Assembly: GCA_026390775.1 (NCBI GenBank)
Contig: JAPLFF010000007.1
Coordinates: forward strand, 310,001-374,000
Source: Ignavibacteriales bacterium
GTDB taxonomy: Bacteria > Bacteroidota > Ignavibacteria > Ignavibacteriales > Melioribacteraceae
DNA: 64,000 nt
Direction: 5' to 3'
Part shown: positions 37,860 to 47,426 of the stretch, piece by piece
Position numbering within the stretch: position 1 is the stretch's first letter
How the letters are laid out: every line of letters begins with the position of its first letter
Program-made: the position numbers and the translations under genes
The notes under the pieces: model-generated
Databases searched by the model: none
Told to the model about the DNA's origin: nothing
Seen by the model: the letters and a program-made list of their open reading frames with translations, nothing else

Positions 37860-40372
37860 TTATTTTATTTTGATAACGATAGAAGTTACATCATCATATT
37901 GAGGAGTTTTACTGCGAAACTCATTCAATTTTTTTATTAAAAGATTTTGAATTTCCGAGCAACTGCTATTTGAATTATCAAGTAATAATTCTTTTAATTT
38001 TTCTTCTCCAAATTGTTCAAAAATAAATCATTTGGTTTGAATGGAATGGTAATTTCTTCTAAAGAAGATTGAAACAGCTCTCCCCTTTCCAAACCAACAC
38101 CCAATCCTGATGGTTGAAACTCTTCAACAATTTTATTTCGAATTCTAATTAATGGAGTATGACCGGCACGGCAAAATTTTACTGAGTTTTCTGAACTATC
38201 AAAAAAAGCTAATGACACTGTTATGAACCAGTTCTTTTCAATATTCTCATAGATTTTTTTATTCACTTCAACTAAAATTTCGCTCGGTGATTTACCTTCG
38301 GTGCAATAAAGCCCTATCATAGTCTGAAGTTTAGACATATAAAACGAAGCACTTAATCCCTTGCCGGATACATCTCCAATTACAACAAATAATTTTTTAT
38401 CGGAGATTTTGATCAGATCAAAATAATCACCGCCGACATGCATTGCAGGTATCATTTTACCGGCAATATCAAGCCGATCAATTTGAGGAAATGTTTTTGG
38501 AAGAAGTGTCTCTTGAATTCTACGTGCATTCTCCAGATCTCTTTCTAATTTTTGTTTCTCCGCTTCAGATTCATAAAGACGGGCAGTATCTATTGAAATT
38601 GCTGTTTGAGTAGCGGCAGCAATTAACAGATCTAAATCTTTCCCGGCAAATTGAGAACCGGATTGCTTAAGACCGAATAATAAAAATCCAATAATTTTTG
38701 ATTTAATGAAAAGAGGAATTATTGTATAAATATTTTCAGAAAGAAATTTTTCAGATGAGTCTCCCAGCACTTCCTTAAAATCTTGACGTTCAAGAACTTG
38801 TTTCTTCCCAAATTTATTACACTCCAAACAATAATTTGCTACATGGAAGTCATCATCAACAAGGTTCAAATCTAAATCGTTAATTCCTTTATGACGAATT
38901 AGATTAAATAAATTATCTTCATTTTTCAAAAGAAGTCCAAATGTTTGAATACGTAGTGAGTGAACAAAAAGTTCTTGGATCGAATCAAAAATATTCTCTT
39001 TTCCAACTGTACTTGCAATTTCACTGCTGAATTTTAACAATGCTTTTTGAAATGTGAATTGCTCGGGATAAAATTTTTCTGTAAGAATATTTTGGAATTT
39101 ATCTTTAGTAGATTGGAATACAAAAGAAAAAACAACAAATACCGCACCTGCAATCATTACCTGATATTCTGTCCCAACTGCACTGCTAACTAACTGCCCT
39201 AACAAATAAATAACAAAATAATAGATCCCAGCAACAGTAAACGTTGCTACGCCGTAAACAATTGCATTCTTTACAAAATCTTTAATATCCATTAAGGAAT
39301 ATTTAAAGATAGAATAACCAAAAGCGATTGGAACAAGTGCAATTAAAAGAATTGGTGTAAAATATTGGGGATTATTGAAAGCTAATCCTACGATTGGTTG
39401 AGCCAAAAAAGTAAAGTATATTCTTGCAAGAACAGCAATAAGAAATGCAATAAGGATTATCAGTATTGGTTTTCTCTCTTTCTTAGTTGGCAGTTTGTAA
39501 TAATTGACAGCGAGAAGTATAAAAGCTAAAATGAAAAGTGCAAACCCCATAAAAAAAATCGCAACACCTAAAACATTTGAAATAGGTGTTTTCTTTATTA
39601 AAAAATATTCATACCCCAGAATGCAATAGTATATTAAGAAAAAACCGACACTCACTTTATAAAAAATTATCTTGAACCATTTTTTTGATACGAAGGGATA
39701 TTCACGCGGGAAAACACTAAAAAAGTGCACCAGTGCTATAGGAAAAAGAATTACTCCTACTGCTATTGAAAATGCAACTAATGAAACTAAAACCTGACTT
39801 TGAAAAATTATATTATCTACCTGCTGACCACGGTAAACAAGCGCAGTTGTAGAATAGAATACCGAAAATATTGCAACTCTATAAAATAAATTCTGAATTT
39901 TTCCTTCAACTTTTGACATTACAACTACGAAAGCAACCAATAACCAAATAAGCGACATTAGATTTATACTCAAACCGCCTATGTCAATCAATTTTTTTAC
40001 AAAAACTTTTGTTTCAAACTCATTGCCGTTCCTTACAACTTTATAGGTTGCATAATCTCCGTAAGAAATTTTATCGAGTACTTTGGTGGCAACTAATGCA
40101 TTATAAGTTTTTGTTCCATCAATCGCGAACAGATAATCGCCGTCTCTGATGCCTGCTTTCCATGTAACACCATCTACTTTTACTTGTTCGAAAACAATAG
40201 TATTGTTACCATTAATTATTTTTTCGCTCCATAAGCATTCATCATTTGATTGAGCAGTTACATTAAAGATAAAATAGAAGTTAATAAACGATAGTATAGC
40301 AAGAAACGCTGTTGAAATTACAATTAATACTTGCTTCTGCTTCGTATAGAATCTCTTAATGTTATTTAACAT
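37860..40372 (-). pseudogene. PDZ-7TM-GAF-PP2C phosphatase gene broken by an internal deletion
   Basis: The reading frame from 40372 is open to 37994 (792 codons). It encodes a membrane helix, a PDZ-like domain (residues about 60-130), about seven membrane helices to residue 430, a GAF domain and a SpoIIE/RsbU-type PP2C domain with intact MHVGGDYFDLI and GDVSGKGLSA. After KPNDLF the frame runs into a stop (NNLEKKN). One base out of phase, FEQFGEEKLKELLL continues to TPQYDDVTSIVIKIK and a stop at 37860, the normal PP2C end. Compared with the two sister proteins, about 13-14 codons are missing, including the TDG/SDG metal-binding Asp. The phosphatase should be inactive. Confidence 0.85.
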
Positions 40373-42051
40373 TAATTCACCTTTATTACTAAACTTGTTA
40401 TATCATCAGATTGTTCGGCTCCGTGTGTGAAATCTTCAACCTTGAATTTAATATGTGCAAGAATATTTTGAGCGCTTTCTTCATATTTTTGAAGAGCTAA
40501 TGTTTCTAATCTCTCGTCTGAAAATTCTTCCCATTTATCATTCATGGCTTCTGTTATTCCATCTGTAAAAAGAATAATTGCATCACCGCTTTTAAGCTGA
40601 ATAGTTTCGGAGATATATGGAATCATTGTTTCCATAACGCCAAGTATCATTCCGCCTTTTTTAAGTTTTGTAATATTGGAATTTCTTATATGAAGCGGAG
40701 GATTATGACCGGCGTTAACATAAGTAAGTTCTTTTTTATCATTATCAATTATTCCCCAAAAGAAAGTGATAAAGCTTCCCATAATTGTATTTTCAGCAAC
40801 AAGATCATTCATTAAATTGGTAGCTTCTGCAAGTTGCATTTTCATTTTGCAAATTGATTTTAAGAATGCTTGAATGTTCGCCATCAACAAAGCAGCAGGA
40901 ACTCCCTTTCCGGAAACATCGGCAATTGCAAACAAGATTTTATTTTCATCTAATTTTACAATATCGTAATAATCACCGCCAACCATGCGTGCAGATTTAT
41001 TAAATGCAGCCATTTCAAAATTTGAAAATTTGGGAATTGATTTCGGCAAAAGATTATTCTGAATATTTCTTGCAGTCTCCAAATCTTTTTCAAGCCGCTG
41101 CTTTTCAAGTGTTTCTTTAAAGAGACGTGCATTTTCAATTGAAATAATTGCAAGACTCCCTACTGAAGAAACAAATTCAATATCAGATTGAGTATACTGA
41201 AGTTCATTCTTTCTTTTTCCAAGAAGAATTAATCCTTTTGTTTCCCCTTTTATCTGCATTGGTACAATAAGGTCAACGCCTACTTCGGCAAATGGTTTGT
41301 ATTTATCAACTAATTCATTTCGGGTAAGAGGTTTTGTAAAATGGCTTGATTCACATTCTTTGAGAATATTTCTTAAATGATTTTCATCAAATCTATTATC
41401 GAGAAAATGTAAAGTATTGGCTGCGCAGGATATCACAGCATATTTAGAGACAAGCATCTGCCCGATCAAAGAATAGACAAGCATTTTGCTTACCATTTCT
41501 ATCTGCAATATTCCGCTGAACTCTTTACTGAGATCAAACAAAGAACTAAGCTGATTAACTTTTGCATCCAGATTACGATTTACACGTTTTAACTTTTCTA
41601 CCATTATTGAATTCTCAATTGCAGTTGATCCGACATTGAGAATTGTTTTTAAAAAATTAATATCCTCTTCTTCGTAATGTTTGCTTGTTAATCTTTGACC
41701 GAGAATTAATATGCCCTTCAACCCCTCGGATGATTTAATATCCTGAACGATTGGAAAATTATTTTCTTCGATATATGAACTCAACTCACCGCTTGTTTCA
41801 TAATTGTGAATTGTAATCTTTGGAAATTTCGAAATAATATTATTAGGAATACCTTTTGATACTTTCACTTCAAAATAATTTTCATCGTTTAGAAGTGCAA
41901 TCATACCTTTTGTTGTATGAAATTTTCCAAAACAAGTAAGCAGAATATTATTAAGACTGAAATTTAGATCGAGAGTTGAGTTAATAAGGTTGCTGAAATC
42001 AACGAGAGCTGAAAAATTTCTAAGAACTGCATTATTATCTGATTGCTGCAT
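40372..42051 (-). CDS. Cytosolic GAF-GAF-PP2C phosphatase (RsbU type)
   Basis: The 559-residue product has two GAF-like sensor domains (about 10-165 and 170-315), a linker helix ending ETARNIQNNLLPK, and a complete PP2C domain. Metal-binding motifs are MVGGDYYDIV, ADVSGKGVPA, LFTDGITEAMN and SDDITSLVIKV. RsbU-type phosphatases remove phosphate from the serine of STAS antagonists, freeing them to bind the RsbW kinase. There is no membrane segment, so the signal is intracellular. It starts two bases after the kinase gene and overlaps the next gene by one base. Confidence 0.92.
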   Translation of the reverse strand: MQQSDNNAVLRNFSALVDFSNLINSTLDLNFSLNNILLTCFGKFHTTKGMIALLNDENYFEVKVSKGIPNNIISKFPKITIHNYETSGELSSYIEENNFPIVQDIKSSEGLKGILILGQRLTSKHYEEEDINFLKTILNVGSTAIENSIMVEKLKRVNRNLDAKVNQLSSLFDLSKEFSGILQIEMVSKMLVYSLIGQMLVSKYAVISCAANTLHFLDNRFDENHLRNILKECESSHFTKPLTRNELVDKYKPFAEVGVDLIVPMQIKGETKGLILLGKRKNELQYTQSDIEFVSSVGSLAIISIENARLFKETLEKQRLEKDLETARNIQNNLLPKSIPKFSNFEMAAFNKSARMVGGDYYDIVKLDENKILFAIADVSGKGVPAALLMANIQAFLKSICKMKMQLAEATNLMNDLVAENTIMGSFITFFWGIIDNDKKELTYVNAGHNPPLHIRNSNITKLKKGGMILGVMETMIPYISETIQLKSGDAIILFTDGITEAMNDKWEEFSDERLETLALQKYEESAQNILAHIKFKVEDFTHGAEQSDDITSLVIKVN

Positions 42052-42053
42052 GC

Positions 42054-42491
42054 CTAATTTGGTAGATATTTAACTAATATGACTTGGTTTTTATTTCCGC
42101 TGAGAGTAGAGTAATTCACTTCATCCATAAGTTTCTTTATCAAAAACATTCCAAGACCGCCTACCCGTTTCTCTTTGTAATATTCACGTAGATTAGGTTC
42201 GGGAACTGTGTTTGGGTCAAAATGTGAACCTTCATCTGTAATGGAAACGCTGAACTTCGGATCACTAAATTTTATTTTTATAATTATATTTCCTTCAGGA
42301 GAATTTTTATAAGCGTGTTTAATTATGTTGGTGCAAGCTTCATCAACAGCAAGTATTATCTTACCGGTAGTATCTTCAGAAAATCCGCAATGATTCGCAG
42401 CAGATTTTATAAAATCTCTTATGACGGCAAGATTGTCGGTTGTGCTTTTAATGAGAAGCTCTTTCTCAAATATTTTGCTGTAAGAATTCAA
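42054..42491 (-). CDS. RsbW-type anti-sigma factor / serine kinase
   Basis: The 145-residue product is a GHKL ATPase of the RsbW/SpoIIAB family. ILAVDEACTNIIKHAYKN is the N-box with the Mg-binding Asn, ITDEGSHFDP is the D-box region, and GGLGMFLIKKLMDEV the glycine-rich loop. Such kinases either hold a sigma factor or phosphorylate a STAS partner. The STAS gene lies directly upstream with a two-base gap, so they are a natural kinase/antagonist pair. The classical sigma-B partner is absent; the sigma in this operon is of ECF type. Confidence 0.93.
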   Translation of the reverse strand: MNSYSKIFEKELLIKSTTDNLAVIRDFIKSAANHCGFSEDTTGKIILAVDEACTNIIKHAYKNSPEGNIIIKIKFSDPKFSVSITDEGSHFDPNTVPEPNLREYYKEKRVGGLGMFLIKKLMDEVNYSTLSGNKNQVILVKYLPN

Positions 42492-42493
42492 GA

Positions 42494-42847
42494 CTATCCT
42501 TGATCGCCAAATTTGTGAACAGCTTCTTTTTCTTCTTTGTAGAATTCGTACAAAATAGGAAATCCTAAAAGATCGAAAATGTTGTAAACATTATCTTTCA
42601 TGTTGGAAAACTTTATGTCGCCTTTGTTTTCCCTCATAGTTTCCACATAAGCCATAAAGACTCCAAGCCCCGCACTGCTGATATATTTCAACTCGTTGAA
42701 GTTAACAACAACTTTAAACTGTCTTTCATCAAGCAGTTTGTTGAAAATATTTTCGAGCTCGGGCGCTGTGTGGGCATCAAGATACCCTTTCACATCAATT
42801 ACACTTACGGAACCGACACCCCGTAAGTTTACATTGAACTCCGCCAT
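42494..42847 (-). CDS. STAS-domain anti-sigma factor antagonist (RsbV type)
   Basis: The 117-residue product is a single STAS domain. NELKYISSAGLGVFMAYVE contains the phosphoacceptor serine, in the S-S-A-G-L-G setting typical of SpoIIAA/RsbV. Unphosphorylated STAS binds the RsbW-type kinase encoded next and releases its target. A second STAS protein is encoded at 47.1 kb on the other strand. With three phosphatases and one kinase nearby, at least two antagonists can be the switch substrate. Confidence 0.94.
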   Translation of the reverse strand: MAEFNVNLRGVGSVSVIDVKGYLDAHTAPELENIFNKLLDERQFKVVVNFNELKYISSAGLGVFMAYVETMRENKGDIKFSNMKDNVYNIFDLLGFPILYEFYKEEKEAVHKFGDQG

Positions 42848-42865
42848 TAAATATCTCCGCTTTAA

Positions 42866-44911
42866 TTAATTATTTTTATTCCACTTGAATATTACAAGCG
42901 TGATGTCATCATGTTGAGAATGATTTTTTGAAAACAGACTCAACTCTTTCATGACTGCACTAGAAATTAGATCTAAACTTTTTTCGCGATTATTGAGAAT
43001 AATGGTATCTAATCTATCATAGCCGAAATCTTCTTCCTTATGATTCTTAGCTTCCGGGATACCATCAGAATAACATATAATAATATCATTATTCTTTAAT
43101 TGAATTTCCATCTCTTTTAATGAAGAAGCAAATCCAGCGTTGTAATCGAGACCCAGACCAATTCCAGGCGGTTGAATGCTTTCTATTCTGTCGCCGCTGC
43201 ATAGTAAGATTGGTGTATGACCTGCTCTTGCAAAATTTAGTATACCATTCTTTTTATTTATAATACCATAAATAGCAGTTACGAAATTTCTTTTATCCAA
43301 ACTTCTTTTTAATGTATCATTTGCTTTGATCAAGAGCTCTTTTGGGTTTGTAATAATTTTCGATAACGATTCAAAAATACCTTTTACTTCTGCCATAATA
43401 AATGCTGAGCTAATTCCTTTACCGGAAACATCAGCAACGACAAATCCAAGTAGATCGTCTGTAAGTTCAAAGAAATCGTAGTAATCCCCGCCGACTTCAA
43501 ATGCCGGAACAAATAATGCAGAAATTTCAAGCTGGTTAGAAGTTGGAATTGTACTTGGAAGAATTTTCCTTTGAATATCTCTGGCAACATCAAGTTCTTT
43601 TTCTAATCTTTCTTTCTCGATTGATTCTTCGATCAACTTAGCATTTTCTAATGCAACAGCAGCATAATCTGCAAATGCTTGAACTGCTTTTTTCTCATCC
43701 TGATCAAAATTATTATCTCTCTGTCTTGCAGCAAAAAGATACCCGTTAATTTTCTTATGAACTTTTAACGGTGCAATTGCGATAGATTTGAATTTCTGTC
43801 CATCTTCGTTTGTGTTAGATATGATTGAATCATGCTGAATAATTTCAATGGAATCATAATCGTTTTCACCGGATCCCAAAAGATTATTAGTAATTTTATC
43901 CGCATCAACATACCCTATATTATGAACTGAACTTAGCTCAATATTTTTATCGGATTTTAAGACTAACCAAGCAGAATCAGAATTACAAACTCTTGTTGTT
44001 ATTGTAGTTATAGTTTCGGCTAATTCTTTAAAATCAAAAACTTGAGTGATAAGGTTAGTTAAGTCCATTAAAGAAGAAACTTCTTCAGCTTTCCTATCAA
44101 ATGCTTCTGCTGTAGGTAGATGGAAAAGAGTTGTAAAAAATATTACACCAAAATTTATTGTTCCGTAAATCATAACCAGGCTCATAAATGTATGAAGCCC
44201 CGGAGAAAAGGAGTAAACGATTTGACGCATTATACTATTATTAGTAAAAGTTGCAAAATTCATTCCGAATAAAGCGGATAGAATTACTGATATTATCAAT
44301 AAATAATATTTCTGTTTTTTTGTTAGGAAGGCAATCCAAGAAACTCTGGTAGAATTAAGACAAATTAAAACAATTGTTACTACATAAAATGCATCTTTAG
44401 GATAATCGAATGAAGAGTCAAAGAGAATTAATATATTAGAGAAAAAGCTCAGGGCAAAGAAAACAAGCATAGTGTTATAGAAAGTGCTGAGATCTTTCTT
44501 CTGTCGTAGAAAAAATAATTCACGGAATGTTGAAAAGATATAAACTATTGATCCGATAAAAACAAATGTTAATAACACAGAAAACAGAGAATTGAAAAAT
44601 CCAATTCCCTTACTGCTATCTGAAGAACCTAAAATTGAATTTGCAATTGAAACTATAAAGAATATTAGTGCGGCAAGAATTCCAGCATTTAATACTAAAG
44701 TTAAAGGAGAATCAACTTTAGAGTTCAAGAACTGGTGGACATAATGATAAAGGAAAAAAACTGAGAGAAATACAAGTAACTCATTTATAATAGCAAGAAC
44801 ATTTGCCTCATGAAGCGGAAAGATCAAGTTGAATAAAAAAAGCAATATGGAAACTAGAATAGCGTTTTCTAATCCTTGCGAACGAGCAATATTTTTTAAT
44901 TGATTGCGCAT
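42866..44911 (-). CDS. Membrane GAF-PP2C phosphatase (RsbU type)
   Basis: The 681-residue product has about eight hydrophobic helices in residues 15-265, a GAF domain (about 285-430), a helical linker (VARDIQRKILPS) and a full PP2C domain. FEVGGDYYDFFELT, ADVSGKGISSAFIMA, CYSDGIPEAKN and HDDITLVIFK are the metal-binding motifs. It lacks the PDZ domain of the broken phosphatase. The membrane half suggests a signal from the envelope. It lies between the candidate anti-sigma gene and the STAS/kinase pair. Confidence 0.92.
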   Translation of the reverse strand: MRNQLKNIARSQGLENAILVSILLFLFNLIFPLHEANVLAIINELLVFLSVFFLYHYVHQFLNSKVDSPLTLVLNAGILAALIFFIVSIANSILGSSDSSKGIGFFNSLFSVLLTFVFIGSIVYIFSTFRELFFLRQKKDLSTFYNTMLVFFALSFFSNILILFDSSFDYPKDAFYVVTIVLICLNSTRVSWIAFLTKKQKYYLLIISVILSALFGMNFATFTNNSIMRQIVYSFSPGLHTFMSLVMIYGTINFGVIFFTTLFHLPTAEAFDRKAEEVSSLMDLTNLITQVFDFKELAETITTITTRVCNSDSAWLVLKSDKNIELSSVHNIGYVDADKITNNLLGSGENDYDSIEIIQHDSIISNTNEDGQKFKSIAIAPLKVHKKINGYLFAARQRDNNFDQDEKKAVQAFADYAAVALENAKLIEESIEKERLEKELDVARDIQRKILPSTIPTSNQLEISALFVPAFEVGGDYYDFFELTDDLLGFVVADVSGKGISSAFIMAEVKGIFESLSKIITNPKELLIKANDTLKRSLDKRNFVTAIYGIINKKNGILNFARAGHTPILLCSGDRIESIQPPGIGLGLDYNAGFASSLKEMEIQLKNNDIIICYSDGIPEAKNHKEEDFGYDRLDTIILNNREKSLDLISSAVMKELSLFSKNHSQHDDITLVIFKWNKNN

Positions 44912-44960
44912 ATTTTACAATTTGGGTCCTGATAAATTTATTTTTACAATTACCATAATG

Positions 44961-46253
44961 TTAGTTCACTCTTGTTGAATCGGTTTTCCGATGGTCATAC
45001 TTTTTAAGATCTTTTTTCAATTTCATCATAGCTTCACGAATTTTTGCTTTTGCCAATGAATCTTTTGCAACGTATTTATGACCAGTGATTGAATCCATCT
45101 TCGCACCAAACTCTTCCAGTTTGCTAAAATCCTGCTTAGAAAGTATTTCCATAGTTTTATTAACTATTTCATAAGGATCAATAAGTTTCGATTGAACATC
45201 TGAGTGTGCATGAGGCGAAGAGGGTACTTTCGGTGGCTTGTAGGATTTTCCTTTGGAAAAATAAATTGGAAGAGAAATATTCTTTAATTGTTTTGCGGCT
45301 TCATTTAGTTTAATTCTAATAGTGTCTGAGATCATATTAGTAAGACCGTTCATAGTCTCGGGAGGAATAACAACTTTGAAGAGATTAGAATCTAATTTAA
45401 ATGAATAATCGGATTCAGCCGCAATTGAATGTTTATTCTTTACTTTCTCTGGCATAACATCGAAATTAAAATCATACTTAGGCATTGGAGGATGTCCAGC
45501 AGATTTACTCTTTTCAAAATCTGCCAAATGTTTATTGAACTTTTCCTGATCCCACTTAAAATAAGTCCTGGCAACAGTATCGGGTGAAATAAGAATATAT
45601 TCATTCTGTGGAATTTCTTTAGCTGAAGCGATCATGTTCGAAATTTTTTCGTTGTTATAAAATTTATAAGCATTCGGAAAAAGTTCTTTCGATTTAGTTT
45701 CATCAACTTTTTGTGCAAATGATAGAATATCCGCAAGTACAGCCTGCTGTAAGACTGGTAGTCTTGGATTTACAGCAATTGTACTTTTATCATTTACTAA
45801 CACAGATGAGTAGATTTCTTTTTTATACGAATTTAATATCGAATCAGCTTCAGCTTTTTGTTTTTCATTCAATCCAAGAAGTTTTACAAATGTATCATAA
45901 TTTTTAGTCTGCTGGTTATAGGAGGCGGGTTTTATTTCATATATATTATTACCAGGTTCATCTTTCGAAATCAACAGAACTTTATTTTTCCCTTTATCAA
46001 GCGGAATGCTCTGATACAACGCAAAGTTAAAAACATCTTCATTGTTAATCTCAGTCTCAAAGAGAAGCGGTTTTAAATTTTTAGCTAAAGCAAGTAAGTT
46101 GTTTTTTCCTGTTTCGATTATTCTGCTAATGTCTCTCCTATTATATTTGAAAAAGAACATCAGTGCTATAGTGAGCAAAAATAAAATAATATAGGGGATT
46201 ATTTTTTTTAATTTATCAAAGTTTGTTGTTTTTTTTTTTGCTTGTCCTTCCAT
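44961..46253 (-). CDS. Membrane-anchored protein with Spy/CpxP-like motif, candidate anti-sigma factor
   Basis: The gene starts three bases after the sigma gene stop, the usual place of an anti-sigma factor. The 430-residue product has a short basic cytoplasmic N-terminus and one membrane helix (residues about 17-40). The long extracytoplasmic part includes LLGLNEKQKAEADSILNSYKK, like the L-T-x-x-Q motif of Spy/CpxP-type periplasmic sensors. I see no zinc anti-sigma motif (H-x3-C-x2-C), and the cytoplasmic part is only about 16 residues, short for a sigma-binding domain. It could be a sensor or target rather than an anti-sigma. Confidence 0.6.
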   Translation of the reverse strand: MEGQAKKKTTNFDKLKKIIPYIILFLLTIALMFFFKYNRRDISRIIETGKNNLLALAKNLKPLLFETEINNEDVFNFALYQSIPLDKGKNKVLLISKDEPGNNIYEIKPASYNQQTKNYDTFVKLLGLNEKQKAEADSILNSYKKEIYSSVLVNDKSTIAVNPRLPVLQQAVLADILSFAQKVDETKSKELFPNAYKFYNNEKISNMIASAKEIPQNEYILISPDTVARTYFKWDQEKFNKHLADFEKSKSAGHPPMPKYDFNFDVMPEKVKNKHSIAAESDYSFKLDSNLFKVVIPPETMNGLTNMISDTIRIKLNEAAKQLKNISLPIYFSKGKSYKPPKVPSSPHAHSDVQSKLIDPYEIVNKTMEILSKQDFSKLEEFGAKMDSITGHKYVAKDSLAKAKIREAMMKLKKDLKKYDHRKTDSTRVN

Positions 46254-46256
46254 ATG

Positions 46257-46856
46257 CTAAGCTCTTAATTCTTTTTGATATGGTTCAAGAATCAATTTTA
46301 AACTTTCACGCGCACGAAATATTCTTGATTTAATTGTTCCGACCTCTGTTCCCATTTGATCTGCAATTTCTTTATAACTAAATCCATCAATATCTCTCAT
46401 CACAAGAGGAGTTCTCAATTTTTCAGGAAGCTTTTCAATTGCTCTTCTTACCAGATTTGGAATATCAACATTTTCAGAAAATGGTCCGGTACCATATTCA
46501 GTATCAGAATCTTTTATAGGGACAAAAATGCTTCGCACTCTTTTTTTACGAAGATAATCTCTGCACTTGTTAACTGTTATTCTATATAACCATGTAGTAA
46601 ATTTTGATTCAAACCGAAATTCTTTGAGCTTATGATAAACACTAATAAAAACATCCTGAGAAATATCATCCACAAATTCTGCATCGCCCAAAGTTAAAAA
46701 GATTAAATTTCTAACCTTATCTTTATGTTTGATGACTAGTGTTCGAAATGTTGTATCATTACCTTTAATGAAGGCTTTAATTAATATAAAGTCTTCATCT
46801 TTCTCATTCTTGCCTTCGCTAAAATCAAATGTCTCTTGGTCTTTTAATAAATCCAT
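46257..46856 (-). CDS. ECF-type RNA polymerase sigma factor
   Basis: The 199-residue product has sigma region 2 (VDDISQDVFISVYHKLKEF and TWLYRITVNKCRDYLRKKR) and region 4 (LPEKLRTPLVMRDIDGFSYK, GTEVGTIKSRIFRARESL), with no region 3, so it is an ECF sigma. It starts at ATG 46856; no GTG or TTG alternative lies downstream within 25 codons. A motif matching ECF promoters ends just four bases before the ATG, so its mRNA may be leaderless and self-driven. It heads a seven-gene leftward operon with small gaps. Confidence 0.94.
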   Translation of the reverse strand: MDLLKDQETFDFSEGKNEKDEDFILIKAFIKGNDTTFRTLVIKHKDKVRNLIFLTLGDAEFVDDISQDVFISVYHKLKEFRFESKFTTWLYRITVNKCRDYLRKKRVRSIFVPIKDSDTEYGTGPFSENVDIPNLVRRAIEKLPEKLRTPLVMRDIDGFSYKEIADQMGTEVGTIKSRIFRARESLKLILEPYQKELRA

Positions 46857-46860
46857 ACTT

Positions 46861-46888
46861 TTAGACGATGATGGGGGTTTATTGTTCC
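46861..46888 (-). promoter_or_regulatory. Candidate ECF autoregulatory promoter
   Basis: On the minus strand GGAAC (46888-46884), a 16-base spacer and CGTCTAA (46867-46861) match the general ECF sigma promoter pattern. The -10 motif ends four bases from the ATG of the ECF sigma gene. Transcription would begin at or within a few bases of the start codon. Confidence 0.6.
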
Positions 46889-47087
46889 TTTCAAACTAAG
46901 CATTTCTGAAATCATTTTTCAAAAGAAACAGAGATAAAATGACTTTCTTTTTACTCGAGTATTCAATAATTTACTTATGAATATAATTATTTGTGCATTA
47001 TTATATCCAATCTGTAAATTTTTATTTTGATTTTCGTTGTAAAATATAAAATCGAGATATAACTTAAACTAATATTCAGGAGTAACT

Positions 47088-47426
47088 ATGAAGGTTAAAA
47101 CAATTGAGAAATATGGGGCTGTTGTAATTGAATTAAAAGGGAATGTTATGGGCGGTCCTGAAGCTCAGGAATTCAGCGATACCCTTCATAAACTTATTGA
47201 TGACGATAAGAAAAATGTAATAGTTGATTTAGCTGAAACAAAATTCATGAACAGTTCCGGTCTCGGTATGTTAATAAGCGGTTACACAACTATGAAGAAC
47301 GGCGGCGGTTCAATGAAACTTGCTAATGCTACAGAAAAGATCGAGAGTTTACTTGTAATTACAAAACTTATAACAGTTTTTGAACATTATACATCTGTTG
47401 AAGACGCTGTTAATAGTTATAAATAA
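47088..47426 (+). CDS. Second STAS-domain anti-sigma antagonist
   Basis: The 112-residue product is a single STAS domain with TKFMNSSGLGMLISGY, holding the phosphoacceptor serine. It is transcribed divergently from the sigma operon across a 231-base gap and ends in its own terminator, so it is expressed separately. It resembles the STAS protein at 42.5 kb only in the fold signature; the rest has diverged. It may be a second substrate for the same kinase and phosphatases. AGGAG precedes the ATG. Confidence 0.93.
   Translation: MKVKTIEKYGAVVIELKGNVMGGPEAQEFSDTLHKLIDDDKKNVIVDLAETKFMNSSGLGMLISGYTTMKNGGGSMKLANATEKIESLLVITKLITVFEHYTSVEDAVNSYK

What the first reader, a model, noticed from the sequence alone, without database searches (positions are those of the whole stretch)
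37860..46856. Seven-gene ECF sigma and partner-switch operon
One leftward operon joins an ECF sigma gene, a membrane protein, three RsbU-type phosphatases (membrane, cytosolic, and membrane with PDZ), a STAS antagonist and a RsbW-type kinase. Gaps are 49 bases or less. RsbW-type kinases normally control sigma-B-like factors, whereas ECF sigmas use other anti-sigmas. Here the two control logics are in one transcript: either the kinase controls the ECF sigma, or the sigma drives a switch acting on something else. Three separate inputs would feed one STAS/kinase pair.
Basis: partly seen in the sequence, partly recalled or inferred. Interest (0 to 1): 0.7.

Follow-up and report, generated by a model that had tools for sequence, protein, structure and literature searches.

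The report
Sigma operon with headless anti-sigma gene
A self-activating gene regulator that once had its own membrane-bound inhibitor became joined to an older phosphorylation switch, and in this bacterial family the part of the inhibitor that grips the regulator has disappeared, which raises the testable question of whether the switch took over its control.

Summary
The operon is real: ECF sigma, membrane protein (MP), RsbU-A, STAS, RsbW-like kinase, RsbU-B, RsbU-C, gaps 49 nt or less. RsbU-C is broken by a 43-nt deletion that relatives lack. Gene order is strongly conserved.

MP is the key. In a sister family it starts with a class I anti-sigma domain (ASD; best PDB matches RsiW and RseA). 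In other orders of the class an ECF/ASD-anti-sigma pair with the same promoter stands apart from the RsbU-STAS-RsbW-RsbU module, which there has no such ECF beside it. So an ECF/anti-sigma pair was joined to an older partner switch, and the sigma-binding domain was then lost in the window's family and another family (ASD in 22 of 22 MPs read from family f2, 0 of 34 here). Three loci lack MP altogether.

A GGAAC-N15-17-CGTC promoter lies at the ECF start in 71 of 77 loci, so the sigma most likely drives this operon. RsbW is the only recognisable sigma antagonist left in the operon. Whether it took over the ECF is open: no sequence signature shows it.

The parts
46861..46888 (-). Predicted ECF promoter GGAAC-N16-CGTCTAA, ending 4 nt before the ECF start codon
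   Evidence: only match in the window; the shorter form GGAAC-N15-17-CGTC is found at 71 of 77 related ECF genes, shuffles expect under 0.1
46257..46856 (-). ECF sigma factor, 199 aa
   Evidence: joined with ECFs of standalone ECF/anti-sigma pairs in the tree
44961..46253 (-). MP, 430 aa: remnant of a membrane anti-sigma, without its sigma-binding domain (15 residues, then a membrane helix, then a presumed extracytoplasmic part)
   Evidence: homologues with the ASD
42866..44911 (-). RsbU-A, 681 aa: membrane helices, GAF, SpoIIE phosphatase
42494..42847 (-). STAS protein (anti-anti-sigma type), 117 aa
42054..42491 (-). RsbW-type kinase, 145 aa
   Evidence: best PDB match RsbW 6m36 1.3e-15
40372..42051 (-). 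RsbU-B, 559 aa: GAF-like part and SpoIIE phosphatase, no membrane helix called
37860..40372 (-). RsbU-C: weak PDZ match, membrane helices, GAF, SpoIIE phosphatase; frame ends at 37994 after a 43-nt deletion near 38017
47088..47426 (+). Divergent second STAS protein, 112 aa, conserved neighbour; role in the system not shown

Best explanation
The operon joins two devices of different origin. One is an ECF sigma with its own class I membrane anti-sigma, autoregulated from a GGAAC...CGTCTAA promoter. The other is a partner-switch module (membrane RsbU, STAS, RsbW, cytosolic RsbU) that has no such sigma gene beside it in other orders and classes. In the ancestor of the window's order the pair came to lie in front of the module, so active sigma raises synthesis of itself and of the switch proteins (inferred from promoter position and gene order). 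In the window's family and one other family the sigma-binding domain of the anti-sigma was then lost, leaving its membrane and presumed extracytoplasmic parts. The switch most likely works as phosphatases against RsbW on the STAS protein; its original target was not this ECF (inferred). What restrains the ECF now is not shown.
For: The N-terminus of MP in family f2 finds RsiW (0.0018) and RseA (0.034) as the two best PDB matches and anti-sigma families (best 1.2e-6). ASD in 22 of 22 f2 MPs and 0 of 34 of the window's group. Outside the order, an ECF gene precedes MP in 17 of 17 fetched places, ASD detected in 16, no switch genes in the segment listed. The module is in 54 of 54 fetched neighbourhoods outside the order without this ECF and in 26 of 26 inside it with it. 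Promoter at 71 of 77 ECF genes. ECF tree: joined operons one group (SH-aLRT 98), with the standalone ECFs apart from own paralogues (96). Module tree: ASD+ and ASD- groups (98, 99).
Against: No expression data: autoregulation and co-transcription are inferred. The trees are quick ones with SH-aLRT only and L077 is a long branch of unsure place. The ASD scores of standalone MPs are modest (22-52 bits) and one of 17 is not detected. Genome-wide motif counts do not exceed the reversed control, so a regulon beyond the operon is weakly supported.
Confidence: 0.72

Rival explanations
1. Take-over: after the ASD was lost, RsbW became the anti-sigma of this ECF. Unphosphorylated STAS draws RsbW off the ECF, which then amplifies the operon: a sigma-B-type switch acting on an ECF sigma. 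It extends the best explanation and does not contradict its history.
For: RsbW is the only recognisable sigma antagonist left in the operon. Only two region-3 sigmas were found in the genome, both RpoD-like by reading. ASD loss is seen only in joined operons: 34 MPs without it there, against 1 of 17 standalone MPs where the model does not detect it but 83 residues still precede the helix. Three weak ASD hits elsewhere in the genome each lie beside another ECF hit.
Against: Only two clade-specific RsbW columns. No significant ECF-RsbW partial distance correlation (0.19, p 0.107), while STAS (0.53) and RsbU-B (0.39) do show one. L230 keeps the module though its ECF gene is broken. The module is widespread without this ECF. 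RsbW was used as a non-interacting control for ECFs in PMC7406223.
Confidence: 0.28
2. The headless MP still restrains the ECF, through its short cytoplasmic tail or through a partner.
For: MP is kept in 34 of the 37 loci of this group in which its presence could be judged and has conserved residues.
Against: Only 7-23 residues precede the helix (33 of 34, one not called) and they vary; class I and CnrY-type anti-sigmas contact both sigma domains (PMC7406223, passages). MP evolves faster here by both tests, shows no correlation with the ECF (-0.21), and is gone in L018, L053 and L077.
Confidence: 0.15
3. The ECF is no longer restrained by any protein and is controlled only by transcription, or the sigma half is decaying.
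For: MP evolves faster and was lost in three loci. Orphan ECFs controlled through their transcription are described (PMC8103513, passages). The tree-length test has the ECF itself evolving faster here (0.92 against 0.67 of RsbU-B).
Against: The ECF frame and its promoter stay conserved in 35 of 38 loci of this group; an unrestrained self-activating loop would be expected to lock on (inference).
Confidence: 0.2

Closest known systems
Sigma-B / SpoIIA partner switching (RsbU-RsbV-RsbW)
   Same: SpoIIE-type phosphatases, STAS protein and RsbW-type kinase in one operon with a sigma gene and a promoter of presumed self-activation.
   Different: The sigma is an ECF, not a region-3 sigma, and had its own ASD anti-sigma; binding of RsbW to it is untested.
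ECF sigma with class I membrane anti-sigma (RpoE-RseA, SigW-RsiW)
   Same: ECF gene followed by a membrane anti-sigma gene; ASD recognisable in relatives; GGAAC-type promoter.
   Different: In the window's family the ASD is missing and a partner-switch module follows.
Bordetella btr locus (BtrS with BtrU, BtrV, BtrW, BtrA)
   Same: An ECF and RsbU/V/W homologues encoded in one locus, with a separate anti-sigma (PMC7498569, passages).
   Different: Type III secretion context; BtrA is a secreted anti-sigma; switch genes interspersed with others; BtrUVW act by an unknown mechanism.
EcfG-NepR-PhyR
   Same: An ECF under partner switching (PMC8103513, PMC8999054, passages).
   Different: Sigma mimicry with a two-component system; no RsbW kinase, STAS or SpoIIE phosphatase.
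RbaV-RbaW-RbaY of Rhodobacter capsulatus
   Same: RsbV/W/Y-like switch in a Gram-negative, without a sigma gene nearby (PMC3999984, passages).
   Different: No ECF in the operon; two-hybrid with two ECFs gave values near the empty vector.

Membership tests
RsbU-V-W partner switch | SpoIIE phosphatase, STAS and HATPase_c_2 kinase genes together | tested here: met
   conserved order
RsbU-V-W partner switch | Kinase phosphorylates STAS, phosphatase reverses it | not testable with these tools
   needs biochemistry
RsbU-V-W partner switch | Kinase binds a sigma factor | tested here: inconclusive
   only indirect tests: no ECF-RsbW signature; no binding test possible
RsbU-V-W partner switch | Region-3 (sigma-B/F-type) sigma as target | tested here: not met
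   two region-3 sigmas found in the genome, both RpoD-like by reading
ECF sigma factor | Sigma regions 2 and 4 only | tested here: met
ECF with class I anti-sigma | Adjacent anti-sigma gene with ASD, window's family | tested here: not met
   0 of 34 MPs of this group
ECF with class I anti-sigma | Adjacent anti-sigma gene with ASD, family f2 and other orders | tested here: met
   22 of 22 and 16 of 17; identity of the ASD (matches below the curated cut-offs where these are shown)
ECF with class I anti-sigma | Autoregulatory promoter | tested here: met
   sequence only: 71 of 77; activity not tested
EcfG-NepR-PhyR | NepR and PhyR beside the ECF | tested here: not met
   no such gene among the ten operon and neighbour proteins scanned

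The most novel reading that the evidence does not exclude
In this lineage an RsbW-type kinase has replaced a class I anti-sigma domain as the restraint on an ECF sigma: ECF control was rewired from membrane sequestration to phosphorylation-driven partner switching, by operon joining followed by loss of the old inhibitor's head, with related families preserving the earlier states.
Probability: 0.28. Interest if true: 0.85.

Novelty: new variant of a known kind. Interest (0 to 1): 0.6.

Why it matters
[quoted passage not shown] Here is a series of natural states: pair and module apart, joined with the anti-sigma domain, joined without it, joined without gene 2, and module kept with the ECF broken. 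It makes directly testable whether an RsbW kinase can take over an ECF, and shows how two regulatory logics merge in one operon.

Tried and rejected
Rejected: a chance neighbourhood (same order and strands in relatives). Rejected: MP as only a Spy/CnrX-like sensor, my first guess from reading; no Pfam support, and relatives show it is an anti-sigma. Rejected: an ASD remnant in the ECF-MP gap of family f3; none seen in the five gaps read. No ORF other than MP matched the ASD model above 15 bits in the loci scanned.

Led nowhere: the AlphaFold model of MP (mean pLDDT 57) and its PDB fold search (no match at E 0.001 or better). Rate tests conflict: at matched RsbU-B identity RsbW and ECF look slower in ASD- lineages, by tree length relative to RsbU-B they look faster (ECF 0.92 against 0.67, RsbW 1.19 against 1.00); only the faster MP and slower STAS and RsbU-A agree. 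Distance correlations had 20 and 6 taxa and are exploratory. ECF clade-specific sites are not decisive. Motif counts are at or below the reversed-pattern control: 13 against 31, 114 against 227, 6 against 14 in the own genome, 72 against 68 over 58 genomes. Sixteen second motif sites in other genomes were looked at (L245-L260): five overlap a coding frame of 100 aa or more, the rest are mixed. A last site (L261) proved to be the operon itself.

Literature searches. No paper on this operon or on an RsbW-controlled ECF appeared in those listings, which show only the best-ranked papers of an open-licence library. Papers opened, passages only: PMC3999984, PMC7498569, PMC7406223, PMC8103513, PMC8999054, PMC7730460, PMC9239204 (98, and section 9). 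The 2021 ECF re-classification paper, asked for by a recalled DOI, is not held.
Full report
What is there. On the minus strand, 46856 down to 37860, lie genes for an ECF sigma, a membrane protein (MP), a membrane RsbU-type phosphatase, a STAS protein, an RsbW-type kinase, a cytosolic RsbU-type phosphatase and a membrane RsbU-type phosphatase with a weak PDZ match; gaps are 3, 49, 18, 2, 2 and -1 nt. Families are confirmed by Pfam and NCBIfam. The last gene is broken: relative to L009 and L010 a 43-nt deletion shifts the frame and removes the stretch with the [S/T]DG motif (role recalled: metal binding); the nearest genome, G330/G332, matches over a stretch 43 nt longer.

Conservation. Of 15 loci found through the ECF, 13 are close relatives, from records labelled Ignavibacteria, Ignavibacteriales, Melioribacter, Melioribacteraceae, Stygiobacter or Bacteroidetes. 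They share order, divergent STAS and purA as far as their contigs reach, except that L018 has no MP, L019 no RsbU-C, and RsbU-A of L009 is split into two frames. The RsbW relative occurs in 141 of 296 genomes sampled from the phylum at E 1e-20. I fetched 80 of these neighbourhoods. This ECF stands in the neighbourhood in 26 of 26 from the window's order and in 0 of 54 from elsewhere, where the usual set is RsbU-STAS-RsbW-RsbU or a part of it; three of the 54 have some other, low-scoring ECF a few genes away. So the module is wider than its link with this ECF.

Gene 2 is an anti-sigma that lost its head. MPs of family f2 carry about 80 extra N-terminal residues. That stretch matches zf-HC2 in 8 of 10 and RseA_N in 7 of 10 at E 0.1 or better (in one search all below the curated cut-offs), PRK13920 'putative anti-sigmaE protein' down to 1.2e-6 in one member (far below its cut-off), and as a profile finds RsiW (5wuq, E 0.0018) and RseA (1or7, E 0.034) as the two best matches in the PDB sequences. 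In the loci read, 22 of 22 f2 MPs have it (75-114 bits) and 0 of 34 MPs of the window's group (families f1 and f3 and the named relatives) do; there 7-23 residues precede the first helix in 33 of 34, one not called. Three further loci of that group (L018, L053, L077) have no MP between ECF and RsbU-A; the genomes of L053 (G047) and L077 (G009) have no MP match at E 1e-5 (the genome of L018 was not searched). L053's sister L239 has MP, so that loss looks recent.

Direction of change. An MP search of 245 class genomes matched 95, of which 54 lie outside the order, some by short stretches only. In 17 of 17 such places that I fetched, an ECF gene directly precedes MP, no switch gene appears in the segment listed, and the ASD is detected in 16; in the 17th (L326) 83 residues precede the helix. 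In nine genomes both places are known and they differ in contig or lie 150 kb apart. ECFs of the joined operons form one group (SH-aLRT 98) and, with the standalone ECFs, stand apart from 12 paralogues of the window's genome (96, quick tree, midpoint root). The module tree, rooted on 12 sigma-free modules, puts ASD+ and ASD- loci in two groups (98, 99); L077 is a long branch in both trees. The simplest history: separate pair and module, joining in the order's ancestor, one loss of the ASD before f1 and f3 split, later losses of MP. Insertion and rearrangement cannot be told apart.

Promoter and regulon. GGAAC-N15-17-CGTC lies at the ECF start in 35 of 38 ASD-, 22 of 22 ASD+ and 14 of 17 standalone loci; shuffled sequences give 0.005, 0.025 and 0.055 loci on average. 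In the joined operons the next ATG follows CGTC by 6-7 nt in 42 of 57, which suggests a leaderless message (spacing rule recalled). In the window's genome the longer form with TAA occurs once, at this operon. Three sites with one mismatch lie 23-30 nt before ORFs: a DUF2807 protein, a DUF5686/CarbopepD_reg protein and one without a family; similar strings recur for the first two in some genomes of the genus. Genome-wide counts do not exceed the reversed control, so a regulon beyond the operon is a lead only, and another ECF could use these sites.

What holds the sigma now. Two region-3 sigmas were found in the genome, both RpoD-like by reading, and 15 hits to sigma r4_2. Three weak ASD hits elsewhere in the genome each lie beside another ECF hit. 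RsbW is therefore a fair candidate, but the evidence is circumstantial. Against it: only two clade-specific RsbW columns; no significant ECF-RsbW partial distance correlation, while STAS and RsbU-B do show one; L230, an f2 locus whose ECF is broken and joined to the end of MP while the module is kept; and the wide distribution of the module without this ECF. I put take-over at 0.28.

Comparison. Bordetella's btr locus has an ECF, a separate anti-sigma and RsbUVW homologues, with the switch acting by an unknown mechanism (PMC7498569). In Rhodobacter the RbaVW switch showed no sigma partner in two-hybrid tests that included two ECFs (PMC3999984). Passages of a review of non-canonical ECFs list EcfG-type partner switching and do not mention RsbW (PMC8999054), and RsbW was used as a non-interacting control for ECFs (PMC7406223). 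The joined operon with a headless anti-sigma did not come up in the searches named in Tried and rejected; I call it a new variant of a known kind.

Noticed in passing
window 46850-46890 and ECF starts in the order: The ECF start codon follows the -10-like CGTC by only 6-7 nt in 42 of 57 joined loci with the motif, so the message may be leaderless; L073 and L078 instead have a longer leader with a possible ribosome site.
   Followed up: partly
L002:1471-1941 and L003:1483-1896: Two further RsbW-like kinases of the same genome have no sigma, STAS or phosphatase among the ORFs of 100 aa or more in the 3.4 kb held (by reading).
   Followed up: partly
L248:2060-3361: In G296 (family f3) an exact copy of the promoter motif lies 392 nt before a gene with RsbRD_N and STAS domains, a possible second link between this ECF type and partner switching.
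   Followed up: partly
L230:784-1187: In G311 (family f2) the ECF gene is broken and runs into the end of MP, while promoter motif and switch module are kept.
   Followed up: partly
L089 and L111: In another family of the class a STAS2-like gene and SecD/SecF genes lie directly beside the sigma-free module; in the window SecD/SecF flank the other end of the operon.
   Followed up: no
window 46950-47000: A short conserved stretch (TAAAAA.AAAG on the ECF strand) recurs between the divergent STAS and ECF genes in many relatives; perhaps part of the STAS promoter (by eye).
   Followed up: no
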